Source: Geobacter sp.
GTDB taxonomy: Bacteria; Desulfobacterota; Desulfuromonadia; Geobacterales; Pseudopelobacteraceae
Direction: 5' to 3'
DNA: 60,780 nt
Assembly (NCBI GenBank): GCA_025360785.1
Contig: JANYBN010000169.1
Span: forward strand, 1 to 60,780
In this document: positions 4,535 through 20,180 of the stretch, piece by piece
How positions within the stretch are numbered: position 1 is the stretch's first letter
Layout: every line of letters begins with the position of its first letter
The notes under the pieces: generated by a model
What the model saw: the letters and a program-made list of their open reading frames with translations, nothing else
Databases searched by the model: none
What the model was told of the DNA's origin: nothing
Program-made: the position numbers and the translations under genes

Positions 4535-5251
4535 TTAACTGTTGCACTGTCCCAGAGCGGTCTGGATCAGTGCAGCCAGGCTGCCGGCATGTACTTTGTT
4601 GTACAGGAGTCCGCCGTCATCGCCAAGAGATACTGTCCCGTAACCGGTTGGTGCAACAGGTTGCGTCGCGGTCATAACCAGGAAAACCGCACCCGGCTTC
4701 AGCGTTACACAGTCGCTGAATGCGTCCGGAACCGGCAGATCGCAGATCCCGGCCAGTATGGTGTCCGCTTCACCCATGGCGAGTTCTTCCATGGCCATGC
4801 GAATGGCGCCGAGGCCGTCTTCTCCGGTTTCATTGATGGCGAGCAGGGATCCGGTGAGTCCGAACTGAATGGCCGCATCGCCCAGAAAACAGTTGGCGAG
4901 AGTGTAGGCAAACAGGTTCGGGCTGGCAAGGCCGCCGCCATTCAAAAGAACGGTCTGGTGGTACTCAAGGTCGGTGGCGAGACACCCCATCCGGGTGGAA
5001 GCGATCACTCCGAACGGTCGCTTTGTGTCCCAGGTCTCCACCCCGGCATCGCGCAGGGCAAAGGCGATGCCGGCAAGCCCCAGTTTTGCATAGTTTGACA
5101 TGCGGCCGAAACGCTGATTCGGCTCAGGAAAAACATCCTTGCGCGTCAGCACAGGAAGCGGCAGGTCCGGAAAGGAGTAATCGTTTCCCCGTCTTCCCCA
5201 GCCGAAGCCCGCGCCGGTGACCCAGCCGATGCCGGTAAGATACACGTCCAT
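4535..5251 (-). CDS. Truncated, non-catalytic ketosynthase-like protein (chain-length-factor-like)
   Basis: 238 residues, matching only the N-terminal half of a beta-ketoacyl synthase (MDVYLTGIGWVTGAG at the start). Aligning FGLTGSLLAINETGEDGLGAI-type sequence at 130-149 with the normal nucleophile elbow puts Gly143 where the catalytic Cys should be. The C-terminal half with the two catalytic histidines is absent. Aryl polyene clusters carry a comparable ketosynthase-like partner annotated as a chain-length factor, so this protein probably pairs with the adjacent intact ketosynthase. It ends the ketosynthase block, its start touching the upstream gene stop. It could instead be a degenerate remnant, but the frame is open and the N-terminus well preserved. 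Confidence 0.8.
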   Translation of the reverse strand: MDVYLTGIGWVTGAGFGWGRRGNDYSFPDLPLPVLTRKDVFPEPNQRFGRMSNYAKLGLAGIAFALRDAGVETWDTKRPFGVIASTRMGCLATDLEYHQTVLLNGGGLASPNLFAYTLANCFLGDAAIQFGLTGSLLAINETGEDGLGAIRMAMEELAMGEADTILAGICDLPVPDAFSDCVTLKPGAVFLVMTATQPVAPTGYGTVSLGDDGGLLYNKVHAGSLAALIQTALGQCNS

Positions 5252-6381
5252 CAGATCTCCTCCCGGCGCAGTATCAGGGCGGCATTGACGCCGCCGAAAC
5301 CTGAATTGGTGCTCAACAGATAGTCGCCGTTGATCTGCTGCACGGAACGGCTCAGGAACCCCTCGCCGGCTTCCTCCGGCTCCAGCATGCCTACGGTGGG
5401 GGGAAGCTGACTCTCTTTAAGGCATTTGAGGCCAAGAGCCGCCTCGATCCCGCCTGCTGCGCCCAGGGTGTGGCCGATTGAACCTTTGATCGAGTTCATC
5501 GGGATGTGGCGCTCCCCGAAGAGTGTGCGGAATGCGGTAAGTTCCATCTGGTCATTATATATGGTTGCGGTGCCGTGAGCACTGATCGCTGCAATCTGCT
5601 GCGGGCCGATGGCAGCCCGTTCCAGCGCTTGACGCACCGATTGGATCAGGCCGCAGCCGTCGCGGGCAGGTGCGGTGATGTGAGTGGCATCGTTGGCCGC
5701 TCCCCATCCGGCAACGACGCCGAGTACCGGGCGTCCCTCGCGGAGCGCCCGCTCGCGGCTCATCAGGAGCAGTGCCGCTCCACCCTCGCCGAGTGTAAGA
5801 CCGTTGCGGTTCCGGTCGAAGGGGCGACAGGCTCCGGGCGACAGGGCCTGAAGCGCTGAGAAGCCGGAAAAAACGAACTCGCTTACCAGATCCATGCAGA
5901 CCACCAGCACCGCCTCGCTTCTTCCGGACGCAATCATGGCTGCGGCACGCGCCACGGCAATGGTTGAGGAGGCGCAGGCCGCGTTGATGTTTATCCCTTG
6001 AGAGGTGAGGTTAAACCTGGCGGCAATGCCGCTCAGCAACTGCGCCATGGGGACTTCGGCCGGATCGCCCGGAAGCCCGGCCTGGAGCCGTTCCATGACG
6101 TCAACGCACCCCTTGGTGCTCGCCGTAATCAGGGTCGCATCGGCGGGAACAGGGCCGAAACCGTCCAGCAGGCGCTCCAGAAGCGGATAGATGCCGGAGC
6201 GGCCGTCCGTTGACTTCAACCCGTCAATCCAGGAGGCGTTACCGGACAGGTAGCGGCCTGTCGCGAAGCGGGTAAGCGGCCTTATAGCGCTTCCACCAGC
6301 CATTAACCCATGCCAGAGGCTGTCCAGATTCGGGCCGAGGCCGGTCACGGTGTGGGCAGAGCTGATGCAGGCCTCTCTCAT
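5251..6381 (-). CDS. Beta-ketoacyl-ACP synthase (aryl polyene type)
   Basis: 376-residue elongating ketosynthase of the FabF/KAS-II fold. The catalytic triad is complete: Cys136 in NINAACASST, His269 in SAHGTAT, His304 in KGSIGHTLGAAGG with Lys299. It condenses malonyl-ACP with the growing acyl chain. The N-terminus lacks the usual VVITGIG start and is a little short, as in several aryl polyene ketosynthases. Its stop codon overlaps the start of the truncated ketosynthase and its ATG overlaps the thioesterase gene by 4 bases. It is one of three intact ketosynthases in the locus, so division of labour is likely (initiation, elongation, or two product types). Confidence 0.9.
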   Translation of the reverse strand: MREACISSAHTVTGLGPNLDSLWHGLMAGGSAIRPLTRFATGRYLSGNASWIDGLKSTDGRSGIYPLLERLLDGFGPVPADATLITASTKGCVDVMERLQAGLPGDPAEVPMAQLLSGIAARFNLTSQGININAACASSTIAVARAAAMIASGRSEAVLVVCMDLVSEFVFSGFSALQALSPGACRPFDRNRNGLTLGEGGAALLLMSRERALREGRPVLGVVAGWGAANDATHITAPARDGCGLIQSVRQALERAAIGPQQIAAISAHGTATIYNDQMELTAFRTLFGERHIPMNSIKGSIGHTLGAAGGIEAALGLKCLKESQLPPTVGMLEPEEAGEGFLSRSVQQINGDYLLSTNSGFGGVNAALILRREEI

Positions 6382-6839
6382 TGGATATCCCCCTTCTGCC
6401 AGCGGTCGAGGAAGTCGCGCACGAACGGCGGCGGGATCAACATGATGTTCTGTTCGGTGTCGAGCAGCATCTGCACCGTGTAACCGGTAGTGGTAATTTC
6501 CTGCGCTTTGTTTCTGATGATGAACTCGAAGTTGAGGCGCGCGGCCGCACTCCAGTGCAGTTTTCCCTCGATACTGAAGACCTCCGGGAAACGGAGGGGG
6601 CGGAAATAGTCGACGTGCATCATCTTGATCGGAGTGAGGATGCCCTGTTCATAGCAGTCAAGGTAGCCGATGCCGTACTTTTCACCGAAAGCCACCCTGG
6701 CGTCCTCGAAAAAGCTCGGATAGCGTCCGTGCCAGACGATGTTGAGCGGGTCAACCTCTTCGAAGCGTACCTGCCGTTCAACGATTACGCTGAGCGGCGA
6801 CGGCGCCCCGTCCTGTACCGGAAAATAGGCGCGGCTCAT
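6378..6839 (-). CDS. 4HBT-family acyl-ACP/CoA thioesterase
   Basis: 153-residue hotdog-fold protein with the 4-hydroxybenzoyl-CoA thioesterase signature: FEEVDPLNIVWHGRY, in which Asp30 is the usual catalytic residue and His37 follows. Length is normal for the family. Similar thioesterases occur in aryl polyene and xanthomonadin-type clusters and may release or proofread acyl-ACP. It overlaps both neighbours by about 4 bases, placing it in a tightly coupled operon. Whether it acts on ACP or CoA thioesters cannot be read from the sequence. Confidence 0.85.
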   Translation of the reverse strand: MSRAYFPVQDGAPSPLSVIVERQVRFEEVDPLNIVWHGRYPSFFEDARVAFGEKYGIGYLDCYEQGILTPIKMMHVDYFRPLRFPEVFSIEGKLHWSAAARLNFEFIIRNKAQEITTTGYTVQMLLDTEQNIMLIPPPFVRDFLDRWQKGDIQ

Positions 6840-7222
6840 GGCGTCTCTCCATTGCTGGCGAGTTCGATCAGCATGCTCGCGGTGGTTGTGTCCCCTACGG
6901 TCAGTTTGGCGTCATAGAGCAGTTTCCCCTTGACGGTCCGCGGTCGGCAGCAGACCAGAAGTTCCTGATCAGGGCTCACCGGGTTGAGAAACTTGGCGTC
7001 TTCGACCGCCACAAGGCGCTGCCGGCACCTCATATGTTCTCCCACCAGCGAGACTACGACCATTATCTCCACAATTGCGGGGAGAATCGGATGTCCCGGA
7101 AAATGGCCGGCGAATCCGGCAAAGCTTTCTGTGAAGCAGTAGCGTCCCTCCAGCGTTCCAGCTTCGTCTGACGTAACGGTACCTTGTGACGCAGCTGCTA
7201 TTCCCTGCAAGATCTTATTCAT
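6836..7222 (-). CDS. FabA/FabZ-like 3-hydroxyacyl-ACP dehydratase
   Basis: 128-residue hotdog protein with the dehydratase signature FAGHFPGHPILPA at 37-49, where His40 is the expected catalytic histidine. It removes water from the 3-hydroxyacyl-ACP produced by the FabG-like reductase to give the trans double bond of the polyene. ATG at 7222 is preferred; a TTG at 7243 in the same frame would add seven residues. The start lies inside the last codons of the upstream lipoprotein gene, so translation is coupled. It is the second dehydratase-like gene of the locus, the other being the ApeP-like gene at 10897-11343. Confidence 0.85.
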   Translation of the reverse strand: MNKILQGIAAASQGTVTSDEAGTLEGRYCFTESFAGFAGHFPGHPILPAIVEIMVVVSLVGEHMRCRQRLVAVEDAKFLNPVSPDQELLVCCRPRTVKGKLLYDAKLTVGDTTTASMLIELASNGETP

Positions 7223-7895
7223 CGGTTTTTTCCACGCTTTCAATCCATAAAGTCAGGCGGTAGCCCGCCCGGTCGTCGTCAAGCACAATGCCGCCGGGAA
7301 AAAGGTGCCCCTGCAGACGTTGATACCGGTAGTAGCGGACCCGCCACGCCCCGGCCGCTCCCCGGAATGATTTTTCGAGCAGCTGGGTATAGGCTCCTCC
7401 GAAGGTAAAGCGAACAGTTCCTCCGGTGCCCTCCGCCCGTGTGAGCTGGTAAGACGTCGGGGTGCGCTCAAGAGCGTCCCCCGGCTCAGGCAACGTGGTG
7501 AGAAAGATTCTCCGTACCGAAACGGCCACCGCTTCGGCAAAGCCGGGATAGCGGGCGAGGTCCGGGATGATGAAGTGCGCCTGGCTCGATGCGGCATCGA
7601 CTGAAATATCGTACAGTTTCACTCCCATATCGTTCATCCCGACCAGTCGGGCGACTTTGGTGCTGCGGTCGAGCTTCATAACCCCGGTGATCGGAACCCG
7701 CATCCTTTCGAATTCAAAAAGGGCTGATTGGCGGATCAAGATGCTTCCGGTACCGGCGCTCCATAAACCTTCGGCAAGCGAAGCGGCAGTCCGGGGAACG
7801 GTCGGGACGAGTTCTGTGGACTCGAACGGGACCGTGGCGCAGGCGCTCACCAACAGCAGGAGCGCACCGAACAAGAACCGGTTCACGCGGATCAT
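7215..7895 (-). CDS. Outer-membrane-type lipoprotein (DUF3261-like)
   Basis: 226-residue lipoprotein. MIRVNRFLFGALLLLVSAC is a type II signal peptide with lipobox LVSAC and Cys19 as the lipidated residue. The rest is a soluble beta-rich domain without recognised catalytic residues. Aryl polyene clusters regularly carry a small lipoprotein of the DUF3261 family next to the MMPL exporter and LolA-like gene, and position here matches that. The start at 7895 overlaps the exporter stop codon (ATGA). A longer frame to 8099 is the shadow of the exporter gene. The role is probably docking or passing the product at the outer membrane; family assignment is from context and general features. Confidence 0.75.
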   Translation of the reverse strand: MIRVNRFLFGALLLLVSACATVPFESTELVPTVPRTAASLAEGLWSAGTGSILIRQSALFEFERMRVPITGVMKLDRSTKVARLVGMNDMGVKLYDISVDAASSQAHFIIPDLARYPGFAEAVAVSVRRIFLTTLPEPGDALERTPTSYQLTRAEGTGGTVRFTFGGAYTQLLEKSFRGAAGAWRVRYYRYQRLQGHLFPGGIVLDDDRAGYRLTLWIESVEKTDE

Positions 7896-10270
7896 GGCTG
7901 ATCCCTGTTGCAGATGGCCGGTATCACCAGAAGCGCTGCCGGGATTCCTGTGCCGATGCCTATGAGTACCGTGATGCCTATGGAGTGCATTGAGGGGTGG
8001 CGCGCCAGGGCAAGAGCGCCAAGCCCTGCAAGCGTCGTGAGCCCCGAGACCAGCACCGCTTTGTTTGCGGCATGGTTGGAGCCTTCGGTGAGTCTGCAAA
8101 CCATGAAAATCCCGTAATCGACGCAGAGCCCGATAATCAGGATGGTCGCTGCGATGTTGAAAATATTGAATTCGAGACCGAGCATTCCCATGATGCCCAG
8201 CATGCAGACGAGCCCGGTCACAACCGGCACCAGTACCAGCATGATGCGGGACGGAGTGCGAAACACGATAACCAGCAGGGCGAATACCAGGGCTGAGGTA
8301 AGAGCCATATAGCGGGTGAAATCATGAATGATGGCCCGTCCCACACTGTCGCCGAAATGGCTCTGCGATACGAGACGCACACCCGGCAGTGTCTTGAGAT
8401 CATCCGAGAGGGCAGCCACCACCTGTGGTGTATCCGGCACCAGGGTCAACACCCGTACCATTCCGGGGGCGCGGATGATCAGCGAATCGACCAGTTCACC
8501 CATGCCGGCCTCCCGCAGGCCTTCAATAGTCGCGGCCGGTGGCGCGGCGCTGAGAGATCCAAGAAGCGGTGCAAAGGCGAGTTTAGAGAAGCCGAAGGCT
8601 CCACCGTATTTTGCCAGATCCTGTCCCAGTTGCTCGGCGCGGCCATTCTGCCAGAAGGAGGTCCATCGTTCGCGGTTTGCCCGTTGTCGCTCGGCGCTTG
8701 GTAATAGCGGCGCAAGACTTACCAGCTCTCCGGCAGGAATGCGTCCGGAGAGCCGCGCGAAGAGCCGGTCGTTCAGCGCCAATGCGCCTTCCAGATCCTT
8801 GGCTTCGGCAAAAAGCAGCGCCTTGTCCCGCATGTCCCCCCAGGTTTTGGCCAGTTCTTCTTCTGCCTGGCGCAGTTCCGGAGTAACCATGCTGACTGAG
8901 CGCAGGTCACCATTGAAGCGGATTTTGGTCGCCTGCCAGGCACAGAGAGCAAGGATGGCCAGCCAGATACCGATCACAGCCCGGCGCGGCATCCGCCAGC
9001 CGATGTTAATGTTTCTGAGCGGGAGACTTGCCGCCACCGCAGGCTTGATCAGGTGAGGCAGCACCAGAAGCGAGATCAGAAGTGCCGCCACGATCCCGGT
9101 CATGCTGTAGATTGCGAGCTGCCGCTGACCCGGAAGGCTCGACATTAGCATGACACCGAAAGAGATGAGCGTCGCGGCAGCGCCGAACAGCACCGGCCTT
9201 GCCACTTCACCGGTGATGACGGCCAGATCTTTGCCCCCCTGTCGGCAGGAAAAATAGATCAGCATGGCGTACTCGTCGGCGATGCCGAGCAGCACCCCGC
9301 CGAAGCCGAGCGTAACAGCAAAGACGTTGGCGTCCCAGAGGCCGATAACCCCGGAGGCAATCACCAGGATCGAGGCGGGAACCAGGAATACGAAAATCGC
9401 GCTCAGGCTTCTCAGGAAGACCAGGTAGATCGCAAGAACCGCAATCACGTTAATCGTCAGCACGATATAGAGGTCTTGTTTGATGGTGTCAGCATTTACC
9501 AGCGTGTAGCGGTGTCCGGAAACGACTGTTGCGGTCATGCCGGCCGGGACGTGTGCGGTCACCGCCCTGTCGATCCGGCCAAGCAGGTCCCGTGAACCGG
9601 CAGAGTCGGTCATGGAAACTTCAGAGTCAACTACCAACAGTGCACTTCTGCCGTCAGCGGACACGAAATGGTTCTGGACCAGGCGCATCTTCGGGACCAT
9701 GTTCAGAAAGCGCATCTTCTCCAGGGCGAGTGTGGAGAAAGAAAGCGGATCGCTCTGGATACTCCCTTTGAGTGCCCACCCCTCTGGAGAAAGGAGCTTT
9801 TCGTAGCTCCCCTGAAGGCGGCTTTGCACTTCGGCGGGGGTAGTGGCGGCGGTGAGGCGGACCAGATCCTCGGCTGTGGCAAGGCTCGGAAGCATTGCTC
9901 CGAGCCAGCCGAAGAAGCCGCCTGAGAGATTTGTCGGCCCGGTCATAACATTGCCGACCCCTTCGTTATTGAGCCCAAGCGCCAGTCGGTCGGCGGCCGC
10001 CGTCAGCGCTGTTGGATCCGTAGCGGCGCCACCCTTTAAAGTGATTACCAGTTTTCGTGTGAATGGAGCCAGCTGCAACAGGCGAAAATCTTTGGCTACA
10101 GAAGAGCTGTCGTCGGGGAGCATCGCGACGATGTCTTCCTGAATTTTCAACTTTGAAGAGGCGAGGGCACTCAGTGCGACAACCAGCAGGGTTGCTGAGA
10201 AGAGTAGTTTACGGCGGCTGGATAAAAAGCGGTACAGTCGCTCGAATAGCGTGAAGGACGGTACCGGCAT
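7892..10270 (-). CDS. MMPL/RND-family exporter
   Basis: 792-residue RND-type transporter of the MMPL family: one N-terminal membrane helix (about 22-40), a periplasmic loop to about 255, a block of five helices, a second loop and a final block of five to six helices ending near residue 785. GIADEYAMLIYFS and GLCVDYGIFMV are the paired helix-4-type motifs with acidic residues used for proton coupling. Homologues in aryl polyene clusters are thought to move the lipid product out of the inner membrane. It lies between the LolA-like and lipoprotein genes with almost no spacing, consistent with a transport module. Confidence 0.88.
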   Translation of the reverse strand: MPVPSFTLFERLYRFLSSRRKLLFSATLLVVALSALASSKLKIQEDIVAMLPDDSSSVAKDFRLLQLAPFTRKLVITLKGGAATDPTALTAAADRLALGLNNEGVGNVMTGPTNLSGGFFGWLGAMLPSLATAEDLVRLTAATTPAEVQSRLQGSYEKLLSPEGWALKGSIQSDPLSFSTLALEKMRFLNMVPKMRLVQNHFVSADGRSALLVVDSEVSMTDSAGSRDLLGRIDRAVTAHVPAGMTATVVSGHRYTLVNADTIKQDLYIVLTINVIAVLAIYLVFLRSLSAIFVFLVPASILVIASGVIGLWDANVFAVTLGFGGVLLGIADEYAMLIYFSCRQGGKDLAVITGEVARPVLFGAAATLISFGVMLMSSLPGQRQLAIYSMTGIVAALLISLLVLPHLIKPAVAASLPLRNINIGWRMPRRAVIGIWLAILALCAWQATKIRFNGDLRSVSMVTPELRQAEEELAKTWGDMRDKALLFAEAKDLEGALALNDRLFARLSGRIPAGELVSLAPLLPSAERQRANRERWTSFWQNGRAEQLGQDLAKYGGAFGFSKLAFAPLLGSLSAAPPAATIEGLREAGMGELVDSLIIRAPGMVRVLTLVPDTPQVVAALSDDLKTLPGVRLVSQSHFGDSVGRAIIHDFTRYMALTSALVFALLVIVFRTPSRIMLVLVPVVTGLVCMLGIMGMLGLEFNIFNIAATILIIGLCVDYGIFMVCRLTEGSNHAANKAVLVSGLTTLAGLGALALARHPSMHSIGITVLIGIGTGIPAALLVIPAICNRDQP

Positions 10271-10900
10271 CTAGAAAAGGTCCGCTTGCAGCGGCTTGTT
10301 CACCGCTGCGTTGACGAATCTGATCCGGGTGTAGTCGCCGTCCTTCTCATGCAGCTCAACACTGCGCACATACCTGCCGTCGGCGCTGAAATTGATCAGC
10401 AGATGGTGCAGGAACCCGGCGGTAGCCGCAGAACGGGGCTCCAGCCGGAGAGCCACCGGAGACTCCGCGAGGACCGTGATCCGGTATTCCTTTTTGAGCC
10501 ACGGAAAATCTGCCTTGGCCCAGGCAAAGAGCTGTTCGGAAACAAGTTTCATGACCGGTTCCTGACTGATCTGAAAGTTTTCAGTGCGACCGGTCCGTTC
10601 ATGCCAGCGCCGCCCTTTGTCCCCCTTCAGGACGAATCCGGAGGCTACCGGCGTAGTCAGTTCCCAGCGTAACTGATCGGGTTTGCTGAAGTAGAAGCGC
10701 CCCTTGGAGGTAAGGACGGTCTTGAACATGCTCAAGTGCTTTTCCTGGACAAAGTCGCTTGACAGAGTCCTGACGGCGCCGGCGGTCCGCTCCAGAGAAC
10801 TGAGGATTGCTGAGGAATCGCCATGGTTCGGGGCTTCACCTGCGGTGGCGGTCGCAGCAGCAAACAGTAAAAAGGTGATCAGGAGCAGCACTTTGGTCAC
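10271..10900 (-). CDS. LolA-like outer-membrane lipoprotein carrier protein
   Basis: 209-residue periplasmic protein with a cleavable signal peptide (MTKVLLLITFLLFAAATATA). The mature part has the LolA pattern: LSSDFVQEKHLSMF, GRFYFSKPDQLRWELTTP, and a following G-rich turn. LolA-fold proteins bind acyl chains in a half-barrel cavity and shuttle them across the periplasm. Aryl polyene clusters carry a dedicated LolA-like gene, so this is read as the polyene carrier and not the housekeeping LolA. It overlaps the upstream dehydratase gene by 4 bases and abuts the exporter gene. Confidence 0.85.
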   Translation of the reverse strand: MTKVLLLITFLLFAAATATAGEAPNHGDSSAILSSLERTAGAVRTLSSDFVQEKHLSMFKTVLTSKGRFYFSKPDQLRWELTTPVASGFVLKGDKGRRWHERTGRTENFQISQEPVMKLVSEQLFAWAKADFPWLKKEYRITVLAESPVALRLEPRSAATAGFLHHLLINFSADGRYVRSVELHEKDGDYTRIRFVNAAVNKPLQADLF

Positions 10901-11343
10901 GCTGCACTCCCCGCTCCGACAATCCAGAGCTTGAGGGAGCCGCTTGCAACAGTTTCCGCGCCGCGCATGATCTCCCCCTCGGCAACGGCGAATCCCTCAA
11001 AACTTCCGACAGTCCTGACGTGGATCAAAAGCTGGTCCTCCGCATAAGCCCTACCGGTAACCCGCATTTTCCGGACGCCAACCAGGTACCCTTTCGAAAT
11101 ATCCTTGCCATGCAGCGTGTCATCATAACCCTTGATGACGGCGTAACCCTGCGCCAGAAGTTCTACGAACGCCGCCTCGTCCAGAACGCCATCCGTCCCG
11201 ACCAGGATGCAGTCGGCGGAAAGACACGCTTCAACCACACCGCTGGCATCACCAAATGAAATAAGTGTCTCCACCAGCCGCATCGGCTGACGATGGGGGA
11301 TGAATGCTTCAGCAGGGATCGGTAATGTCAGGTCTTTCTTCAT
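10897..11343 (-). CDS. ApeP-like hotdog dehydratase
   Basis: 148-residue protein resembling the ApeP/ApeI type of 3-hydroxyacyl-ACP dehydratase. The N-terminal IPHRQPMRLVE places His17 at the position of the catalytic histidine (other members read LPHxxPMxLL). A second hotdog gene at 6836-7222 is of FabZ type, so the locus has two dissimilar dehydratases, as aryl polyene clusters do. It lies between the ammonia-lyase and the LolA-like gene, with 24 bases to the former. Function as a partner or alternative dehydratase in polyene formation is inferred from family and context. Confidence 0.78.
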   Translation of the reverse strand: MKKDLTLPIPAEAFIPHRQPMRLVETLISFGDASGVVEACLSADCILVGTDGVLDEAAFVELLAQGYAVIKGYDDTLHGKDISKGYLVGVRKMRVTGRAYAEDQLLIHVRTVGSFEGFAVAEGEIMRGAETVASGSLKLWIVGAGSAA

Positions 11344-11367
11344 GCAGGTTTTCCTGTGATGTTTATA

Positions 11368-12993
11368 TTAAGCACGAGTGTCAAAAAACTGTACCGGCTC
11401 CGGCGTCTGGCGCCAGTAGACCTGCAGGTCATCGAAAATCTGGCTGGAGAACAGGAGCTTTCTGAATTTTACAAGATCATCGTGAAACACCCGCTTGTTG
11501 TCGTAGACTTTAAATTCCTTGTTCAGGATCTGATAGATCCGTCCGGTCGCGGTGCCGAGCTGGTCGGCGTTCCGGAAGGAGAGCGCCTGGAGGTCGGTGA
11601 AAATCTCAAGCGTCACGACATGTTTTGCGTTGCTGACCGACTTGAAGGCTTTGCGGGCTGCTACCGTTCCCATGCTGACCACGTCCTGGTTCGAGGCGTT
11701 GCAGGAGATGGAGTTCGTGGAAACCGGGTTGGCAAGCTGGCGGTTTTCCGCGGTTGTTGAGGTCGCCAGGTACTGTGCTCCCATAAACCCCATGGTCAGT
11801 CCGAGCGTGCCGGGGATCAGGAATTCGGGGAGTCCTTCGTTCAGGTTCTTGTCGAGGAATTTGTTGATTCTCCGCTCCGAGAGTGTGCAGAGCGTTGCCA
11901 TAGCCATGCAGAGAGAGTCCATGGCGAAGCCGATGCTCTGGCCGTGAAAATTGCCACCGTGGATGATCTTCTTCTTCTCCGGGATGATAATCGGGTTGTC
12001 GTTGGACGAGTTCGCCTCGGTCTCAACCACCTTGGTCGCGGCTTCGATCGCCTCAAGCACCGGGGCGAGAATCTGGGGGGTGCAGCGAATGGAATAGACA
12101 TCCTGCACGTTGATGCTCGTCTCGTACACCGGTCCCTCGGTCTCGTGCCCGCGGATCAGCTCGTGCATGTCCTTTCTGAGGGTGATGTTACCCGAACCCG
12201 CGTAGAGATTCCGGATGGTTTCGGCTACCTTGAGCTGGCCCGGATGCGGCTTGACCAGGTGGAGGTCTTCATCGAAAGCATCGTCGATGCCGCCGAAAAT
12301 TTCCAGGGCGAAGGCACCGGTTACGCAGCTGATCCGGAGCAGTTTTTTGGCGCCGAACAGGGCGAAAGCCGCCAGTGCGGTCATGGCACTTGTGCCGTTC
12401 ATAAGGGCTATACCCTCCTTGAAACTCAGCACCATCGGAACGATGGCGAGCTTTGAGAAGAGTGCCGCCGTATTGTGAAGCTCATCCTTGTAGTAGGATT
12501 TTCCCTCACCGATAATGGTAAGAGAAAGGTGCGCCAGGTGGATCAGATCGCCAGAGGCCCCGACGCTTCCACATTCCGGAATATATGGAGCGATGCCGCG
12601 GTTAACCATATCCTTCATGAACTCCAGCAGTTCGATGCGTACTCCGCTGTACCCCTTGACCAGAGTGTTCAGGCGTATGGCCATGATGGCGATGGCGACG
12701 TACGAGGGGAGCGGGTCCCCGAGTCCGGCGGCGTGGCTGCGGATAAGGTTCACCTGGAGCGCCTCGATCTCGGCATCATTTATGATCTTGTTGCACATCG
12801 GACCGTACGACGTGTTCACCCCGTAGACGATGCGCCGGGCGGCAACCTCCTCCTCAAGGAAGGTCCTGCTGGCACGGCAGCGCAGCAGGGCGGCCGGGTC
12901 AAGAGCGACCTGTTTGTCTCCTACTCCGATGGCGACGATATCTTCTACAGTGAGATCACTGCCGTTCAATACGATGGTGGAACGTTCTGACAT
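11368..12993 (-). CDS. Aromatic amino-acid ammonia-lyase (HAL/TAL family)
   Basis: 541-residue MIO-type ammonia-lyase. The cofactor-forming triad Ala146-Ser147-Gly148 is in GSVGASGDLIHLAHL, and the catalytic Tyr57 is in VYGVNTSYGP. The specificity loop reads NLIRSHAAGLG with Ser86-His87, resembling bacterial flexirubin tyrosine ammonia-lyases (NLIRSH) more than plant enzymes. Histidine lyases share the Ser-His, so the substrate is not fixed by sequence, but no other hut gene is present. In this context it would make 4-coumarate or cinnamate as polyketide starter. Start ATG at 12993 has AAGGGA upstream; a longer frame to 13110 overlaps the ligase gene. Next to the AMP ligase. Confidence 0.88.
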   Translation of the reverse strand: MSERSTIVLNGSDLTVEDIVAIGVGDKQVALDPAALLRCRASRTFLEEEVAARRIVYGVNTSYGPMCNKIINDAEIEALQVNLIRSHAAGLGDPLPSYVAIAIMAIRLNTLVKGYSGVRIELLEFMKDMVNRGIAPYIPECGSVGASGDLIHLAHLSLTIIGEGKSYYKDELHNTAALFSKLAIVPMVLSFKEGIALMNGTSAMTALAAFALFGAKKLLRISCVTGAFALEIFGGIDDAFDEDLHLVKPHPGQLKVAETIRNLYAGSGNITLRKDMHELIRGHETEGPVYETSINVQDVYSIRCTPQILAPVLEAIEAATKVVETEANSSNDNPIIIPEKKKIIHGGNFHGQSIGFAMDSLCMAMATLCTLSERRINKFLDKNLNEGLPEFLIPGTLGLTMGFMGAQYLATSTTAENRQLANPVSTNSISCNASNQDVVSMGTVAARKAFKSVSNAKHVVTLEIFTDLQALSFRNADQLGTATGRIYQILNKEFKVYDNKRVFHDDLVKFRKLLFSSQIFDDLQVYWRQTPEPVQFFDTRA

Positions 12994-13060
12994 GATGAAT
13001 TCCCTTTTTAAATGTAGAGTCTGTTGCTGTGGGCAACTGCCCGCTTGAAGCAAGCGTCCT

Positions 13061-14392: not shown

Positions 14393-15183
14393 TGATTACC
14401 CTGCATCTCTTCGAGTTTACCTGCCATGCGTTTCCGCACCTCCCTGCGCAACTCGGCAAGTCCTCTTTTTCCGGGATAATCTTTGGGGTCCACCGGATCG
14501 AGAACCGTGAGCCTGACTTTGGCGGGGTGCAGAAATGAGCGCCCGGGGGGAAGCATGATGTCGGTACCGGTTATGCAGAGCGGTACTATCGGCACACCGG
14601 TCTCCTGTGCGAGGCGGAAAGCGCCGGAGTAAAAGGGCTGCAGCTTCCCGTTCCTGCTCCTGTGACCTTCCGGAAAAAAAAGTACGGTCCCCTGTTTGTC
14701 AAAGGCCTCTGTGCAGGTCTGCATGACCTCGTTCCAGTCGTTTGTTTCCACGTCCAGATAGCGTGCAAGCCGCATGAACATGGTATACCAGTACATCTTG
14801 AACGGCCACGCTCCGACGGCAAAAATTATGTCATGGAAGGGGAGCGTCGAGATGAAATAGCTGTCAAAAAACGAGAGGTGATTGACGACCATGATGCAGG
14901 GACGCTTGATGCCGGCAAACCCTTCCCCCCGGAAACGTACGAAAGGGGAGACCATGACGACCAGGCCGTAGCCGTGGATGTTGATCAAATGCCTGACGAT
15001 CCGGCCGATATCCCATCCGGTTACGACCTTCCAGATAACGAGACAGAAAGGAGATGCCAGAATTCCAGCGACAATCCATAGGGCCATCAAAGGGTAGAAC
15101 ATCAGGTTCAGCAGTATTGCTTGTATCCGATTCCGTTTTCCGGCGCCAACCCGGTGCCGATTACTGCGCGAACTGGTTGCCAC
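14389..15183 (-). CDS. Lysophospholipid-acyltransferase-family acyltransferase
   Basis: 264-residue PlsC-type acyltransferase with an N-terminal hydrophobic segment (about 24-55). The catalytic HX4D motif is in NHLSFFDS and the second block is FPEGHRSRNGKL. In aryl polyene and flexirubin clusters such enzymes transfer acyl chains to build the lipid anchor or esterify the polyene with a resorcinol. It sits between the ACP gene (4 bases away) and the AMP ligase, fitting ACP-dependent acyl transfer. The acceptor is unknown. Confidence 0.85.
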   Translation of the reverse strand: MATSSRSNRHRVGAGKRNRIQAILLNLMFYPLMALWIVAGILASPFCLVIWKVVTGWDIGRIVRHLINIHGYGLVVMVSPFVRFRGEGFAGIKRPCIMVVNHLSFFDSYFISTLPFHDIIFAVGAWPFKMYWYTMFMRLARYLDVETNDWNEVMQTCTEAFDKQGTVLFFPEGHRSRNGKLQPFYSGAFRLAQETGVPIVPLCITGTDIMLPPGRSFLHPAKVRLTVLDPVDPKDYPGKRGLAELRREVRKRMAGKLEEMQGNQ

Positions 15184-15186
15184 GAA

Positions 15187-15447
15187 CTATGCGCTCTCCA
15201 TCTGACGTTTTTTGTCGATTACAAAGGTGTGGATGTCGCCGAGAGTGCGGATCTTGCGGATCGCCTCCTCCTCGCGAATTTTCATGCCGAAAGCAGACTC
15301 CAGAACGATGACCAGGTCCACGACATCAAGGCTGTCCAATCCCATCTCTTCAAACAGGGTTGTGTCGGGTGTCATATCGCCCAAGGCGTACTCAAACTCC
15401 TCGGCAAGCGAACTGTTGATCTGCTCTATTATTTCCTGATCAGTCAT
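15187..15447 (-). CDS. Acyl carrier protein
   Basis: 86-residue ACP with the phosphopantetheine site Ser39 in FEEMGLDSLDVVDL. It is the only ACP seen in the 20-kb locus; many aryl polyene loci have two. It would carry the starter and all chain intermediates between ketosynthases, reductase and dehydratases. It lies between a ketosynthase (adjacent stop/start) and the acyltransferase. Confidence 0.93.
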   Translation of the reverse strand: MTDQEIIEQINSSLAEEFEYALGDMTPDTTLFEEMGLDSLDVVDLVIVLESAFGMKIREEEAIRKIRTLGDIHTFVIDKKRQMESA

Positions 15448-16674
15448 TTAAGTATATCTCCTTAGAATTATGGATGAATTTACGCCACCCAAGGCGAAGT
15501 TGTTTTTAATCACCGTAGTAACCGGGCGTTTTGTCACTCCATGCAAGTGCTGCACATTTGCGCAGAGCGGATCGACGTGTTCCAGGTTGAGAGTCGGTAT
15601 CAAAAGCCCATGACGGAGCATCTCGATGCAGGCGGCCAGTTCCAGGGTGCCGCTGGCAGCCATCGCGTGTCCCAGGTGCCCCTTAAGACTGCTGACGGGG
15701 GTCGTGTTACCGAAGATGCTCGAAATTGCTTCGCACTCGGCGATGTCGCCCTGCTCGGTAGCCGTAGCGTGGGCGTTAACATAGTCGATCTGTTCCGGTT
15801 TGACCTCTGCGTCGAGCGCCAGGCGCATACAGTTCGCTATGCAAGACGAGTTCGGGTTGGCGATGCTTCCCGGGTCAGAGTTGGTGGCGAAACCAAGTAT
15901 TTCTGCGAGGATGGTAGCGTTACGTCCAATAGCCGACTCCAGCGATTCGAGAAGCAGCACACCACTCCCTTCACCGCAAACTATGCCGTCGCGGTCCAAA
16001 TCAAATGGGCGCGGGGTGCTGGTCGGGGAATCGTTGAACGCGGTTGAGGCGGCGTTCATGATGTCGAAAGTCCCGGAGGTGAGAGGGTGAAACTCGTCCG
16101 CACCACCGCAGAGCATGAAGTCCTGCTTACCCATGCCGATCATCTCGGCTGCGTAGCCGACCGCGTGGCAACTTGTAGAGCAGGCGGCAGACGGTGCCAG
16201 GATTCTCCCGGTTACGCCAAGCATCTGGGCTACGTTCGAAGCACAGCTGTGGTTCATAATATGGAAAAAAAGCGTTGATTTCATACGCTCAAGGCTGTTG
16301 TCAATGCCGAAATCCCGGAAAAAATCCTGCATGGTCTGCGGACTGCCGATCGTCGAGCCTATCGAGACCCCAAGCCGCCCGTTACTAAGATGCGCCTCGG
16401 TGAGCCCCGCCATCGCGGCGGCATCCAGACTGGCAAGGGTGGCAAAGATAGACATGCTTGACATGGAACGACGGAATTTTCTCGGAATTTCCATCGGGTC
16501 GACCCCTGTTGCAAGGGCTGCAACCCGGGTCCTCATCCCTGTTATTTCAGATAGACCGGGGACCTGAACTACGCCGCTTTTGCCCGCGAGGAGCGAGTTC
16601 ATCATGTTTTCGATTCCGCGGCCAAATGGGGATACGACCCCTATACCCGTTATGACGACTCTTTTCAGCAGCAT
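15448..16674 (-). CDS. Beta-ketoacyl-ACP synthase (FabF-like)
   Basis: 408-residue complete ketosynthase. It begins KRVVITGIGVVSPFG and has Cys165 in APSAACSTSC, His302 in NAHATATEQGD, Lys331 and His336 in LKGHLGHAMAASG. It extends the chain with malonyl-ACP. ATG at 16674 was chosen because the family starts here; the open frame continues to 16977 over the 3-prime end of the oxidoreductase gene. It overlaps that gene by 10 bases and abuts the ACP gene, so ketosynthase and ACP are likely made together. Confidence 0.92.
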   Translation of the reverse strand: MLLKRVVITGIGVVSPFGRGIENMMNSLLAGKSGVVQVPGLSEITGMRTRVAALATGVDPMEIPRKFRRSMSSMSIFATLASLDAAAMAGLTEAHLSNGRLGVSIGSTIGSPQTMQDFFRDFGIDNSLERMKSTLFFHIMNHSCASNVAQMLGVTGRILAPSAACSTSCHAVGYAAEMIGMGKQDFMLCGGADEFHPLTSGTFDIMNAASTAFNDSPTSTPRPFDLDRDGIVCGEGSGVLLLESLESAIGRNATILAEILGFATNSDPGSIANPNSSCIANCMRLALDAEVKPEQIDYVNAHATATEQGDIAECEAISSIFGNTTPVSSLKGHLGHAMAASGTLELAACIEMLRHGLLIPTLNLEHVDPLCANVQHLHGVTKRPVTTVIKNNFALGGVNSSIILRRYT

Positions 16675-18152
16675 GCCTTCAGTTCCTTTCTCATAATGTC
16701 GTGCCCGAGGATGGTGCCGCAGGCGAGTAACCCGGAGAGCACAGCCCCCATGACTCCGGGGGAAACCACCGCCTGACCTGCCAGAAACAGCCCCGGTATT
16801 CTCGTTGTTGGATGAGGGTTGTACTGGCCGACCATGTGTTTGACCCCGTACAGCCCGCCCAGCGGAGTGTTGCAGAAGTCTCTGATGGTAAGCGGGGTTG
16901 AACCCTCCATGTACTGTATGTTCCCGGCGAGATCCGGATGCGCCCGTTCGATCTGGATCTGCATCCGCTCCAGGCACTGCCCCTTGTACCGCCGGTACTC
17001 CTCTGGGCGCTTCCCGAAGCGGGAAGACTCCCAGGAAGTCGTTTCGGTAAAGAGGGTGGGGCAGATCCCGATGAATCCGTGCGGTTCTATCTCATCCTTC
17101 CTGTAGGCGGCGCTCAGGTAGAGCGGGGCATCCCCGATAGGTCTTCTGCCGAGATCGGAGAGGCAACCGGCATCCGGAAGCAGAAATCTGTTGGCCCCGG
17201 CAAGTGATGGGATCGGTCTGTTTGATACAGCGTAGCACATGAACGCTGAAACTGTTTCTTCGAGGGCTCCGAGGCGCTTGCGGTAGGCAGGGCGGAAGGT
17301 TCCCTCTGGTGCCAGTTCCAGGAGAATCCGGGGGTGAACAGTTGCGATCACTGCATTACAGGCGAGTGAACCGCCAGAGGCAAACCGCACCCCGGAAAGA
17401 GCCCCTCCGGGTGCGACCGTGATTCCGGCCACTTCGCTAGAACAAAATACATCTACACCAAGTTTCGAAAGCCTGGTATCGCAGGCCTGTGCAAGACTCA
17501 AACCGCCACCGCGTATGCCGCGCACCGATTCGTAGTAGTTACCGACGATTGACGCGTGCTGGGCAAACGAAACCTCGTCGCATGAAACACCATACAAAAG
17601 GCAATGCGTGGAAAGCAAGCTTTTTAGCAGTACATTTTCCGTCAGGGAATCCAGTTTTTCCCGTACTGTCGGCCCGAGAACCCTCTGCAGTGCTGAGTTC
17701 TGGTCGATCTCCATGTCAAGGTTCAGGTAAGGAAGGGCGTTACAAGTGGCTCTAACCTGTGAAAGATAGCTTCCAATCGCCGCGCGCTCGTCAGGAAACG
17801 CCTCGCCTAACCTCTCCTGGAGCTTGGCGTAACCGGTCGGTATCTTGAACTCGAAGCCTGGATTCTCGCAGTTGAAAATGTCGAAGCCATCCTCGTCGAA
17901 GGAAAAGCTGGTTAAATGTTCGGAAAGGCCGAGATAACGGAAAAATATGTCCAGGGGTTCTCCTGCGCCAAGCCCACCCGTGTAATGGAAACCGGTATCA
18001 AAATGCACCCCCTGGCGCGAGAAACCTCGTAAAAGCGGGGCAATGCGGTCTGCTTTTTCTACAAGTGCCACGTGGTAGCCGTTTTGGGCAAGGGTTATGG
18101 CTGAAGTGATGCCGGAGACCCCAGCACCTATGACTACGAAATCATACCTCAT
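16665..18152 (-). CDS. CrtI-like FAD-dependent oxidoreductase
   Basis: 495-residue flavoprotein of the phytoene desaturase/retinol saturase/carotene isomerase superfamily. The N-terminal dinucleotide-binding motif is FVVIGAGVSGITSA with the distal acidic residue in VALVEKAD; the C-terminal PGLFLAGQAVVSPGVMGAV segment is the second FAD contact. Family members desaturate, saturate or isomerise polyenes, so a late redox or cis/trans step on the polyene is plausible. It is translationally coupled on both sides to ketosynthase genes. This enzyme class is not a fixed part of aryl polyene clusters but appears in candidate ladderane and some flexirubin-like loci. Confidence 0.82.
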   Translation of the reverse strand: MRYDFVVIGAGVSGITSAITLAQNGYHVALVEKADRIAPLLRGFSRQGVHFDTGFHYTGGLGAGEPLDIFFRYLGLSEHLTSFSFDEDGFDIFNCENPGFEFKIPTGYAKLQERLGEAFPDERAAIGSYLSQVRATCNALPYLNLDMEIDQNSALQRVLGPTVREKLDSLTENVLLKSLLSTHCLLYGVSCDEVSFAQHASIVGNYYESVRGIRGGGLSLAQACDTRLSKLGVDVFCSSEVAGITVAPGGALSGVRFASGGSLACNAVIATVHPRILLELAPEGTFRPAYRKRLGALEETVSAFMCYAVSNRPIPSLAGANRFLLPDAGCLSDLGRRPIGDAPLYLSAAYRKDEIEPHGFIGICPTLFTETTSWESSRFGKRPEEYRRYKGQCLERMQIQIERAHPDLAGNIQYMEGSTPLTIRDFCNTPLGGLYGVKHMVGQYNPHPTTRIPGLFLAGQAVVSPGVMGAVLSGLLACGTILGHDIMRKELKACC

Positions 18153-19369
18153 TCAGTAAATTTCAGCACCAGGCAGGAGTTGGTTCCGCCAAAGCCAGCT
18201 GAGTTGCAAAGTACATGCTCAGGTGAACGGTCAATGCGGTCTGCAGCAATATTCAGGCATGCAGAGAACTCGTCGGGTTCTGTGAAGTTGATGTTCGGCG
18301 CGATGAAGCCTTGTCTGGCCATAATGGTAGAATAGACTACCTGCGAGGCCCCGGACATCCAGAGTTCGTGGCCGGTCATTGATTTGATGGAGGAAACCGG
18401 CGGGGTCCTCGGCCCGAATACGGCCGAAATGTTGCGCGCCTCGGCAGCGTCCCCGGCGGGGGTCGAGGTGGCATGCGCACAGATGTAATCGATATCGCAC
18501 TCCTTGATCCCGGCTAGCGAAATAGCCTTGCGCATGGCCCGCTGCAACCCGTCCTGGCTCGGTACCGAAATGTGATTGCCGTCGGAAGAGAAGGCATACC
18601 CGCCGATCTCGCCAAGGATGACGGCACCCCGCGCCTGGGCCAGGTCGTAGCGTTCCAGGACGATGGCTGCTGCACCGCCGCTCGGAACCAGGCCGTCGCG
18701 GCCGGCATCGAAGGGGCGCGATGCGCGCTCTGGGTCATCGAGGCGTGTCGAGAAGGCTCCAAGGGCATCAAAACTGCACATCGATTGCCAGTTTATCTCC
18801 TGGGCGCCCCCGCAGATTACCCTCTCCTGTCGTCCGAAGGCGATCAGGTCTGCGGCCTGGCCGACTGCATGGCCGCCACTGGAGCAGGCGGAGCTTATGG
18901 TCCAGCAGGCGCCGCCGGTCTTGAAAAGGGTATTCAGGTTCATCGTGATGCAGGAGGTCATGGAGCGAAAAACGTGGCCGCTGCCGATCAGCTTGGTCTC
19001 GCCGCGCTCTCTGAGCAGGTCTACCTGCTCAATCGCCGCGATGCAGCTGGAGTCACAGCCGAAAATAAGCCCAGTCTCGGCGTTTTGCACATCATCCTCA
19101 CCGAGCCCCGACATCGTGAGCGCATTGACTGCAGCCGTGTGGGCCTGTACGGCGAAGTCCGGCATGGTTTTACACTGTTTTTTGGACAGTAGCGCACGTG
19201 GATCAAAGTCGCGGATAGCTCCGGTTAGCGGGCTTCTGAAACCGAGCTTGCGGCGCTCTTCGTCGAGGATTATTCCCGAACGCCCCGCCCTTAATGCCTG
19301 TCCAACGGCCTCAATGGTATTGCCGAGGCAGGAAACGATGCCTATTCCGGTAATTGCAACTCTATGCAC
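18149..19369 (-). CDS. Beta-ketoacyl-ACP synthase
   Basis: 406-residue intact ketosynthase starting HRVAITGIGIVSCLG. Catalytic residues: Cys162 in SSACSSGGHAV, His299 in CAHATSTPAGD, Lys329 and His334 in SSIKSMTGHELWMSGA. The GHELWMSGA segment and a basic middle region differ from the FabF-like enzyme at 15448-16674, so the two are not recent duplicates and may handle different chain lengths or starters. Its start overlaps nothing upstream; 82 bases separate it from FabG. Confidence 0.9.
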   Translation of the reverse strand: MHRVAITGIGIVSCLGNTIEAVGQALRAGRSGIILDEERRKLGFRSPLTGAIRDFDPRALLSKKQCKTMPDFAVQAHTAAVNALTMSGLGEDDVQNAETGLIFGCDSSCIAAIEQVDLLRERGETKLIGSGHVFRSMTSCITMNLNTLFKTGGACWTISSACSSGGHAVGQAADLIAFGRQERVICGGAQEINWQSMCSFDALGAFSTRLDDPERASRPFDAGRDGLVPSGGAAAIVLERYDLAQARGAVILGEIGGYAFSSDGNHISVPSQDGLQRAMRKAISLAGIKECDIDYICAHATSTPAGDAAEARNISAVFGPRTPPVSSIKSMTGHELWMSGASQVVYSTIMARQGFIAPNINFTEPDEFSACLNIAADRIDRSPEHVLCNSAGFGGTNSCLVLKFTE

Positions 19370-19451
19370 AGTGCCTCGCTAGATAAACAGGGTGTAACGA
19401 TTGATATTAAATGTTGCTTGGAGGACGGTTCGAACACCTCGTGTCAGTCTG

Positions 19452-20180
19452 CTACATATAGGCGCCGCCGTTCACCGCGATGACCTGCCCGGTGATGTAG
19501 GACGCCTTATCCGAGCAAAGAAACGCGACAACTTCAGCGACCTCCTCCGGCTTTCCGACGCGTTCCATTGGTATCATCGGCAGAATTCGCTCTATCGGGA
19601 GGCCGTCAATCATCTCAGTCTCGATAAATCCCGGCGATACTGCGTTCACCAGTACCTTCCGCTTGGCGCTCTCGGCGGCAAGGGCCTTGGTTGCGCCTAT
19701 CAGTCCTGCCTTCGCTGCAGAGTAGTTTACCTGGCCCGGCATGCCGCTCTGTCCGGATGTGGAGGCGATGTTAACGATTCTTCCCCCCCTTCTCTTGAGC
19801 ATGCCGACCAAAAGCATCTTTGTGACCAGAAAGAAACCGTCAAGGTGGACGGAGAGTACGTCCTTCCATTCGCTTTCCCCCATCCAGACCATCAAGGTGT
19901 CCTTGGCAAAACCTGCATTGTTTACCAGCACGAAGGGAGATTCCAGGTCAAGAAGCGGCCCGAGTGTATCCTTCACCTCTGCGGGGTTGGCTACGTCAAA
20001 GCACAATAGCCTGCAGGATCTTCCCATCGCTTCGATCTGCCTGCCTACTTCTGTCGCAGCAGTATGATCGGAACGGTAATTAAGCCAGATGTCGAAGCCT
20101 TCTCGTGCAAGAACCAGAGCAATGGCAGCTCCGATCCCCTTGCTCGCCCCGGTAACCAAGGCTATCTTTTGCTCTTGCAT
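19452..20180 (-). CDS. 3-oxoacyl-ACP reductase (FabG-like)
   Basis: 242-residue short-chain dehydrogenase. GASKGIG at 11-17 binds NADP(H), NNAG is at 87-90, and the catalytic Ser140, Tyr153 and Lys157 lie in [10 protein letters not shown] and YSAAK. The C-terminal [11 protein letters not shown] is typical of FabG. It reduces the beta-keto group between condensation and dehydration. It is the first gene of the minus-strand locus, with AAGGA 10 bases before ATG and a likely promoter about 75-100 bases upstream. Confidence 0.9.

What the first reader, a model, noticed from the sequence alone, without database searches (positions are those of the whole stretch)
4535..20180. Aryl-polyene/flexirubin-like locus with its own ammonia-lyase and PaaK-like ligase
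Sixteen minus-strand genes combine three intact ketosynthases, one degenerate ketosynthase, ACP, FabG, two dehydratases, thioesterase, acyltransferase, LolA-like, MMPL and a lipoprotein with an HAL/TAL-family lyase and an AMP ligase. The MIO triad and catalytic residues are visible. This predicts a starter of the coumarate or cinnamate type and an outer-membrane polyene, in an obligate-anaerobe-type lineage where such pigments are little described. Family roles are established for aryl polyenes and flexirubins; the product here is inference.
Basis: partly seen in the sequence, partly recalled or inferred. Interest (0 to 1): 0.8.

Follow-up and report, generated by a model that had tools for sequence, protein, structure and literature searches.

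The report
Flexirubin-like operon with ladderane-type enzymes
A Geobacter-like anaerobe carries one gene array that should build a pigment-like aromatic polyene lipid from tyrosine and send it to the outer membrane, and the same array runs on into radical enzymes of a family known as a candidate for making the strange 'ladder' lipids of anammox bacteria.

Summary
Sixteen minus-strand genes (4535-20180) form an aryl-polyene/flexirubin-type module with its own MIO lyase and FlxY-like ligase. The lyase is not a histidine lyase: it has Gln where HALs have Glu, the motif combination reported for the proven tyrosine lyase FlxA; a 100/99 branch parts it from HAL-type lyases; no urocanase was found. 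KS2 sits in a 100/100 clade with ApeR. The 'degenerate' ketosynthase resembles the half-size chain-length factor ApeC.

In relatives they lead into a second module (LpxL-like, ACP, KS, KS', PagL, DarG, DarH, ABC), found here on two small contigs. In one complete relative the modules lie 2.6 Mb apart. The slot beside the ligase holds the lyase (11 loci) or a SPASM radical-SAM gene (6).

Verdict: new variant of a known kind, bridging aryl-polyene/flexirubin clusters and the anammox 'ladderane' gene set. Product and radical-SAM chemistry are inferred; anammox sequences could not be compared.

The parts
19452..20180 (-). FabG-type ketoreductase (FlxB/ApeQ role)
   Evidence: NCBIfam FlxB 302 bits (cut-off 340), FabG PRK05653.1-5 291 bits (cut-off 273)
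18149..19369 (-). KS1, intact ketosynthase, sister clade to FabB
16665..18152 (-). CrtI/CrtD-like FAD oxidoreductase (phytoene-dehydrogenase type)
   Evidence: PF01593 63.7 bits; TIGR02733 93.6 bits, far under its cut-off of 549.7
15448..16674 (-). KS2, ApeR-type ketosynthase
   Evidence: best solved relatives 4EWG 310 bits and 7F27 290 bits, which are PpApeR and AbApeR; 100/100 clade
15187..15447 (-). acyl carrier protein
   Evidence: PF00550 42.7 bits
14389..15183 (-). PlsC-type acyltransferase (ApeD role)
   Evidence: PF01553 77.9 bits
13061..14392 (-). FlxY/PaaK-like acyl-CoA ligase (coumarate activation, inferred)
   Evidence: NF053551 FlxY 467 bits, cut-off 520
11368..12993 (-). MIO aromatic amino-acid lyase, Gln (non-HAL) type; predicted tyrosine ammonia-lyase
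   Evidence: PF00221 546 bits; motifs NLIRSHAAG / GSVGASGDL / SNQDVVSMG; tree
10897..11343 (-). ApeP-like dehydratase
   Evidence: PF22817 30.2 bits, cut-off 27
10271..10900 (-). LolA-like periplasmic carrier (flexirubin LolA2-like, ApeL role)
   Evidence: PF03548 70.5 bits; NF053544 115 bits, cut-off 125
7892..10270 (-). MMPL/RND-type exporter (ApeM role)
   Evidence: PF03176 75.5 bits
7215..7895 (-). outer-membrane lipoprotein, DUF3261/LolB-like (ApeN role)
   Evidence: PF11659 19.7 bits, under its cut-off; lipobox-like LLVSAC in the translation
6836..7243 (-). ApeI-like dehydratase
   Evidence: PF22818 20.3 bits, under its cut-off
6378..6839 (-). 4HBT-type thioesterase (ApeK role)
   Evidence: PF13279 59.7 bits
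5251..6381 (-). KS3, intact ketosynthase, proposed ApeO-like partner of the next gene
   Evidence: PF02801 98.1 bits; separate clade
4535..5251 (-). half-size ketosynthase-like protein, proposed ApeC-type chain-length factor
   Evidence: 238 aa, matches only the first KS half; AlphaFold pLDDT 86.3, pTM 0.87; Foldseek hit 6QSP chain B (ApeC, 238 residues) at rank 9, E 3.9e-9, TM 0.59/0.59
3130..4395 (-). rS1, radical-SAM protein (CKFDCFPC), weak B12 domain
   Evidence: PF02310 28.1 and PF04055 24.1 bits, both under cut-off; motif; relatives with usable ORFs in 25 of the 30 loci L022-L051
1790..3133 (-). rS2, B12/radical-SAM protein of the 'ladderane' family TIGR04072
   Evidence: 683 bits, cut-off 360
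183..1631 (-). rS3, B12/radical-SAM protein (BchE/HpnJ-like), last gene before the contig end
   Evidence: PF04055 85 bits, PF02310 81 bits

Best explanation
It is one operon-like array with two lipid-building modules. Module 1 (4535-20180): the lyase deaminates tyrosine to 4-coumarate; the FlxY-like ligase activates it; KS3 with its half-size partner, helped by ApeR-like KS2 and by KS1, extends it with malonyl units on the ACP; FabG and the two dehydratases turn each unit into a conjugated double bond; the PlsC-type acyltransferase and thioesterase hand the aryl-polyene acyl chain to a lipid; MMPL, LolA and the LolB-like lipoprotein carry it to the outer membrane. Module 2 (rS1-rS3, then LpxL-like acyltransferase, ACP, KS, KS', PagL, DarG, DarH, ABC ATPase; in this genome split over two more contigs) makes or modifies a second lipid part, as the dialkylresorcinol module does in flexirubin, with B12 radical-SAM chemistry on it. 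Shown: gene content, order, motifs, clades, separability of the modules. Inferred: substrates, product, export route, the joining of two lipids, and what CrtI and the radical-SAM enzymes do.
For: Module 1 families resemble the ape gene set of E. coli (table passages of PMC8253772) and the flexirubin set (PMC3992019 passages). KS2 in a 100/100 clade with ApeR. Lyase: Gln at motif 2 and HAL-like motif 1, the combination reported for FlxA, a proven TAL with about 1000-fold preference for tyrosine; Gln and Glu types split by one 100/99 branch; no urocanase match in the genome. In 141 genomes of the order the lyase family occurs in 9, and in all 9 one copy lies 8-12 kb from rS3. Same sixteen genes in the same order in a one-contig genome, with module 2 elsewhere (L157 at 3.57 Mb, L158 at 0.99 Mb). 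Module 2 orthologues in this genome on contigs C37 and C91. DarG and DarH over cut-off in L026.
Against: FlxA, FlxB, FlxY and LolA2 models score under their curated cut-offs. No methyltransferase, glycosyltransferase or ApeH-type loader was named by the models among the sixteen. No DarA/DarB model hit among the nine L026 downstream ORFs scanned. In G031 the ligase is gone and the lyase is at most a 28-bit remnant, though thirteen of the sixteen stand, so an aryl starter is not essential everywhere; G008, G028 and G035 also have rS3 without the lyase. KS1 is sister to FabB (99/96), and KS3 scores higher to FabF than to ApeO structures. I know of no chemistry for TIGR04072 or the CrtI-like enzyme; two anammox CrtI-like proteins failed to make lycopene (PMC4790861 passages). 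The genome is a 229-contig assembly; the link from the window to C37 and C91 rests on gene order in relatives.
Confidence: 0.7

Rival explanations
1. A plain new member of the flexirubin family: coumaroyl polyene esterified to a dialkylresorcinol, the radical-SAM genes being neighbours of unrelated function.
For: FlxA/FlxB/FlxY/LolA2 are among the best models; DarG and DarH sit in module 2.
Against: No DarA/DarB model hit among the nine downstream ORFs scanned. rS1-rS3 with LpxL-like, KS and KS' stay together where no module-1 gene is seen in the 5.7 kb or more upstream (L024/L084, L028, L030) and as a block in L158, so they are not stray neighbours.
Confidence: 0.15
2. A ladderane or ladderane-like (cyclobutane) lipid pathway as in anammox bacteria, fed by an aromatic starter.
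For: TIGR04072 683 bits; CrtI-like, phenylacetyl-CoA-ligase-like and non-canonical KS genes recur in the Kuenenia list.
Against: Desulfotalea with a syntenic cluster made no detected ladderanes (abstract); attempts with Kuenenia genes in E. coli did not succeed (abstract); Kuenenia sequences were not compared here.
Confidence: 0.07
3. The lyase belongs to histidine breakdown and merely lies inside a lipid operon.
For: hutH models give the highest raw scores (488 and 501 bits); motif 1 is HAL-like.
Against: Under both hutH cut-offs; Gln at motif 2; no urocanase match; directly after the ligase in the 11 distinct loci that show both; does not group with HAL types.
Confidence: 0.02
4. An anaerobic polyunsaturated fatty acid pathway with no aryl starter in its main product (the 2009 reading for Kuenenia and Desulfotalea clusters).
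For: PMC2649909; versions without lyase and ligase exist (L026, L040, L041, L160).
Against: In the window the lyase and ligase are in the array, closely spaced with their neighbours, and the ApeR-type KS, ApeP-like dehydratase and MMPL/LolA genes point to aryl polyenes.
Confidence: 0.06

Closest known systems
Flexirubin clusters of Chitinophaga/Flavobacterium (flxA-flxY plus dar)
   Same: TAL-type lyase with the same two-motif combination, FlxY-like ligase, FlxB-like reductase, LolA2-like carrier, PlsC, exporter, several KS; a second lipid module that may be joined or elsewhere; DarG and DarH relatives
   Different: all four flx/LolA2 models score under cut-off; no DarA/DarB hit among the ORFs scanned; carries CrtI-like, three B12 radical-SAM genes, LpxL-like and PagL genes, which the passages read on flexirubin do not name
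Aryl polyene (ape) clusters of E. coli, Xenorhabdus, Acinetobacter
   Same: ApeR-type KS, KS with a half-size chain-length-factor-like partner, ApeP/ApeI-like dehydratases, TE, PlsC, LolA, MMPL, DUF3261-like lipoprotein
   Different: starter made from an amino acid by its own lyase and activated by a PaaK/FlxY-type ligase instead of 4-hydroxybenzoate loaded by ApeH; one ACP in module 1; no ApeB-, ApeG- or ApeJ-like family named
Kuenenia 'ladderane' candidate clusters and the Desulfotalea/Geobacter clusters of Rattray 2009 (PMC2649909)
   Same: B12/radical-SAM, phytoene-dehydrogenase-like, phenylacetyl-CoA-ligase-like, non-canonical FabF, FabZ, FabG, ACPs, membrane protein
   Different: the two papers do not mention an ammonia-lyase (0 occurrences; 'ammonia' twice, both 'ammonia-oxidizing'); product of the non-anammox clusters unknown; anammox sequences not compared here

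Membership tests
Aryl polyene cluster | ApeR-type ketosynthase | tested here: met
   KS2: 100/100 clade with PpApeR and AbApeR (identities)
Aryl polyene cluster | KS plus half-size chain-length factor (ApeO-ApeC) | tested here: inconclusive
   KSd is 238 aa and matches one KS half; Foldseek lists ApeC 6QSP_B and, by size, 7F28_C among FabF-like hits, but VIA-align's 50 rows do not list them, and KS3 scores higher to FabF than to 6QSP or 7F28
Aryl polyene cluster | ApeP and ApeI dehydratases | tested here: inconclusive
   ApeP model over cut-off (30.2/27), ApeI model under (20.3/28.5)
Aryl polyene cluster | ApeH acyl-ACP synthetase with 4-hydroxybenzoate starter | tested here: not met
   the only AMP ligase among the sixteen is FlxY/PaaK-like
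Flexirubin cluster | TAL FlxA (NF053541) | tested here: not met
   473 bits, cut-off 700; motif combination agrees with FlxA's
Flexirubin cluster | ligase FlxY (NF053551) | tested here: not met
   467 bits, cut-off 520; best model by far
Flexirubin cluster | DarA/DarB for the dialkylresorcinol | tested here: inconclusive
   no hit of that name among nine downstream ORFs of L026; the rest of the genome was not searched for them
Flexirubin cluster | DarG and DarH | tested here: inconclusive
   L026: DarG family 133 bits (cut-off 70) and DarH 480 (cut-off 300) over cut-off, but flexirubin_DarG 128 bits under its 170; orthologues in this genome on C91
'Ladderane' radical-SAM family TIGR04072 | score over the curated cut-off | tested here: met
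   683 bits, cut-off 360; paralogues of another locus type also pass it at 368-410 bits
Ladderane pathway | makes cyclobutane-bearing lipids | not testable with these tools
   needs lipid chemistry
Ladderane pathway | cluster genes orthologous to Kuenenia kuste genes | not tested
   no anammox genome was reached; only published gene lists were read
Histidine ammonia-lyase | Glu in the [N/D][K/Q]EDHV motif | tested here: not met
   SNQDVVSMG; rule as given in PMC3992019
Histidine ammonia-lyase | urocanase in the genome | tested here: not met
   PF01175: no match in G000

The most novel reading that the evidence does not exclude
The anammox 'ladderane' gene set and this locus are branches of one family of two-module aryl-polyene/flexirubin-like pathways. 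A polyene or acyl chain is the substrate, and the three B12 radical-SAM enzymes with the CrtI-like oxidoreductase remodel it, possibly into rings, giving an aryl-capped cyclised outer-membrane lipid in Geobacterales. Ladderane synthesis would then have grown out of a pigment pathway, and a Geobacter relative would be a workable stand-in for studying it.
Probability: 0.12. Interest if true: 0.85.

Novelty: new variant of a known kind. Interest (0 to 1): 0.6.

Why it matters
Clusters called 'ladderane' turn up and are expressed in Desulfobacterota, Verrucomicrobiota and other phyla that are not known to make ladderanes, with unknown function (PMC9902471 passages). This locus offers a testable answer for a part of them: tyrosine-started aryl-polyene-type lipids with a second, radical-SAM-modified part. 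It also means that the phytoene-dehydrogenase-like, ligase and TIGR04072-type genes on the ladderane candidate list need not be ladderane-specific. The lyase/SPASM swap next to the ligase points to a possible second, radical route to the starter.

Tried and rejected
Histidine breakdown: rejected. Housekeeping fatty-acid synthesis: of nine KS matches in the genome (E up to 1e-5, one KS query) three are the window's, one is module 2's, four lie in longer ORFs on C100 and C16, and the one FabF-sized other (C176) pairs with E. coli FabF. Decayed-gene reading of the half-size KS: disfavoured, since 21 aligned sequences keep 11 invariant columns. Motif 1 as a substrate predictor: dropped, since most Gln and all Glu rows share SH there. 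PDB look-ups of rS2 and CrtI gave only distant relatives (tryptophan C2-methyltransferase 120 bits; carotene desaturase 30 bits). Plasmid search with the lyase gave 859 records, all under 60% identity. ACP search gave generic ACPs. Correlated loss of CrtI with lyase and ligase: seen in G031 but not in L160, which keeps a CrtI-like gene, so not claimed. VIA-align did not list ApeC among its 50 rows. In print: paper searches listed, by title and abstract start, no paper that describes this cluster apart from the related ones of PMC2649909; some lists were capped (20 of 57, 20 of 28, 30 of 54), and most subscription papers are not held. antiSMASH and MIBiG were not available.

Rows dropped: in the KS tree only hits whose span exceeded 330 residues were kept and E. 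coli FabF is a 353-residue part; the lyase tree used 24 of the 51 rows plus SgTAM; one search covers 35 of the 51 lyases; one search used 21 of 24 half-size KS sequences (window plus 23).
Full report
What is there. The window is contig G000:C77 of a 3.9 Mb, 229-contig genome. Sixteen minus-strand ORFs from 20180 down to 4535 encode, in order, FabG, KS1, a CrtI-like FAD oxidoreductase, KS2, ACP, PlsC, ligase, MIO lyase, ApeP-like dehydratase, LolA, MMPL, lipoprotein, ApeI-like dehydratase, thioesterase, KS3 and a half-length KS. Gaps within the sixteen run from -29 to +82 bp.

What was missed. The array goes on with three radical-SAM genes to position 183, with gaps of 139, -4 and 158 bp. Each keeps a CxxxCxxC motif. 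The middle one, rS2, scores 683 bits against TIGR04072, 'lipid biosynthesis B12-binding/radical SAM protein', cut-off 360.

The locus in relatives. A scan with rS2 gave 41 loci; a table of best phmmer matches to the window genes was made for 62 loci and redone with nine downstream ORFs of L026 added. Downstream of rS3 relatives carry an LpxL-like acyltransferase, ACP, FabF-like KS, CLF-like KS', PagL, DarG, DarH and an ABC ATPase (families read on L026). In the window's own genome these genes lie on contigs C37 (3,077 bases: LpxL-like, ACP, KS, start of KS') and C91 (4,596 bases: rest of KS', PagL, DarG, DarH, ABC).

Two modules. In G458, one contig, the sixteen genes lie in the same order at 3.57 Mb (L157), and rS1-rS2-rS3-LpxL-ACP-KS-KS'-PagL-DarG-DarH-ABC lie at 0.99 Mb (L158). 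Three more loci have the radical-SAM block with LpxL, KS and KS' and no module-1 match upstream in view: L024/L084 (G008, 13.3 kb upstream), L030 (8.6 kb) and L028 (5.7 kb); whether those genomes hold module 1 elsewhere was not searched. This parallels Chitinophaga, where the polyene genes (Cpin_1853-1877) and the resorcinol genes (Cpin_6850-6851) lie apart (PMC3992019 passages).

The lyase. NCBIfam models: hutH 488 and 501 bits (cut-offs 539 and 524), FlxA 473 (700), and the aminomutase models under cut-off too. Motif 2 is SNQDVVSMG, with Gln where HALs have Glu; motif 1 is the HAL-like NLIRSHAAG. The paper on FlxA reports just this combination, and FlxA prefers tyrosine about 1000-fold (PMC3992019 passages and section 5). 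In one search (51 rows, one a copy of the window's) 14 distinct lyases of the window's group have Gln, 6 further Gln types lie near rS2 relatives, 29 have Glu, 1 has no residues there. The tree puts all 16 Gln rows, SgTAM among them, on one side of a branch (100/99) and the 9 Glu rows on the other; its root is only the midpoint, and the program warns that some long branches meet. No urocanase match in G000.

Association. Of 141 genomes of the order, 13 have rS3 (a 290-residue part was used) at 85% identity or more; further matches reach 35-59%. 9 of 141 have the lyase family, each with one copy 8-12 kb from rS3. The four with rS3 but no lyase are G008, G028, G031 and G035, all listed at 99-100% completeness; two of these contigs are short (5.4 and 12.1 kb), but the search covered whole genomes. 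In a phylum sample of 395 genomes the lyase (E up to 1e-40) occurs in 51, an rS2 relative (E up to 1e-60) in 113, both in 26 (odds ratio 3.1, P 0.0004), and in 7 of the 26 they lie on one contig within 25 kb. Of the lyases that I examined (35 of 51), all 7 co-located ones are Gln type and 27 of 28 others are Glu type; the exception is G458's, which sits in module 1. These tests ignore kinship.

Starter slot. In the 17 distinct loci where a ligase match over 200 bits has its next gene in view, that gene is the MIO lyase in 11 and a SPASM-type radical-SAM protein in 6 (Desulforhopalus, Desulfopila, Desulfurivibrio, a deltaproteobacterium MAG, a Kiritimatiellales MAG and G056), never both. The four SPASM proteins scanned score best, far under cut-off, to AhbD or NirJ2 models. 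The two further ligases scanned, one beside each type, are FlxY-like (L051 417 bits, L157 460 bits, cut-off 520). Against a strict rule: L029 and L044 show a lyase without a ligase hit, and L026/L074, L040, L041 and L160 have neither between PlsC and the next gene.

Known work. Rattray 2009 (PMC2649909; abstract, passages, section 9 and part 1 of 11) described such clusters in Kuenenia, Desulfotalea, Geobacter and Pelobacter as candidate ladderane or PUFA clusters; 'ammonia-lyase' occurs nowhere in it. Javidpour 2016 (PMC4790861; abstract and passages) expressed Kuenenia genes without success. The Cariaco paper (PMC9902471; passages) reports 'ladderane' clusters in Desulfobacterota and others, function unknown. 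So the general cluster type is known; the aryl-polyene nature, its lyase-ligase starter unit and the two-module layout are what this analysis adds. Genome-mining papers often name both aryl-polyene and ladderane clusters (term counts); whether the two calls fall on one locus there I did not check.

Limits. No anammox sequence was compared. Product and chemistry are inferred. The genome is a draft. Pontiella (PMC7356697), Red Sea (PMC6562949) and E. coli (PMC8253772) papers were read only in passages.

Noticed in passing
window 126-157; L162 (G000:C37) 104-135: A 32-base element (GGACAGAAACTANNTAAGGGGAGATTTAGAGG) lies at the window's left end and near the start of contig C37, and its 25-base core matches exactly only there in the genome. 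Relative to the operon the two copies face opposite ways, so they may flank an inserted element between rS3 and the LpxL-like gene that broke the assembly.
   Followed up: partly
L079-L081 and other Geobacterales loci: A second, commoner locus type holds a TIGR04072 paralogue (359-410 bits); in the two examples fetched it lies with FabG, TE, KS, KS', LolA and MMPL relatives. In 58 genomes it occurs in 33, the window's type (616-686 bits) in 7, both in 0 (P 0.0016 ignoring kinship): the two may replace one another.
   Followed up: partly
L042, L045, L047, L049, L051, L088: A SPASM radical-SAM gene takes the lyase's place beside the FlxY-like ligase. Kuenenia lists a SAM radical gene (kuste3343) next in number to its phenylacetyl-CoA ligase (kuste3344); whether it is the same protein was not tested.
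   Followed up: partly
L073/L074 (G031:C50): A close relative lacks the ligase and the CrtI gene of module 1 and keeps only a 28-bit lyase match between PlsC and the ApeP-like gene, while the other thirteen module-1 genes and rS1-rS3 stand: the aryl starter seems to have been lost.
   Followed up: partly
L075 (G069) and L077 (G092): G069 shows rS3 directly after the half-size KS with no rS1 or rS2 match between; G092 shows rS2 and rS3 but no rS1 match. So rS1 and rS2 are missing from the usual place in some lyase-bearing loci; whether they lie elsewhere was not checked.
   Followed up: no
L149-L153, L155, L156: A further Gln-type lyase group (FHGCG or YHGCG / HNQDKVS) recurs near TIGR04072 relatives, variously with KS, CrtI, FabG, LolA or MMPL relatives, in five other families of the phylum, possibly another aryl-started pathway.
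   Followed up: partly
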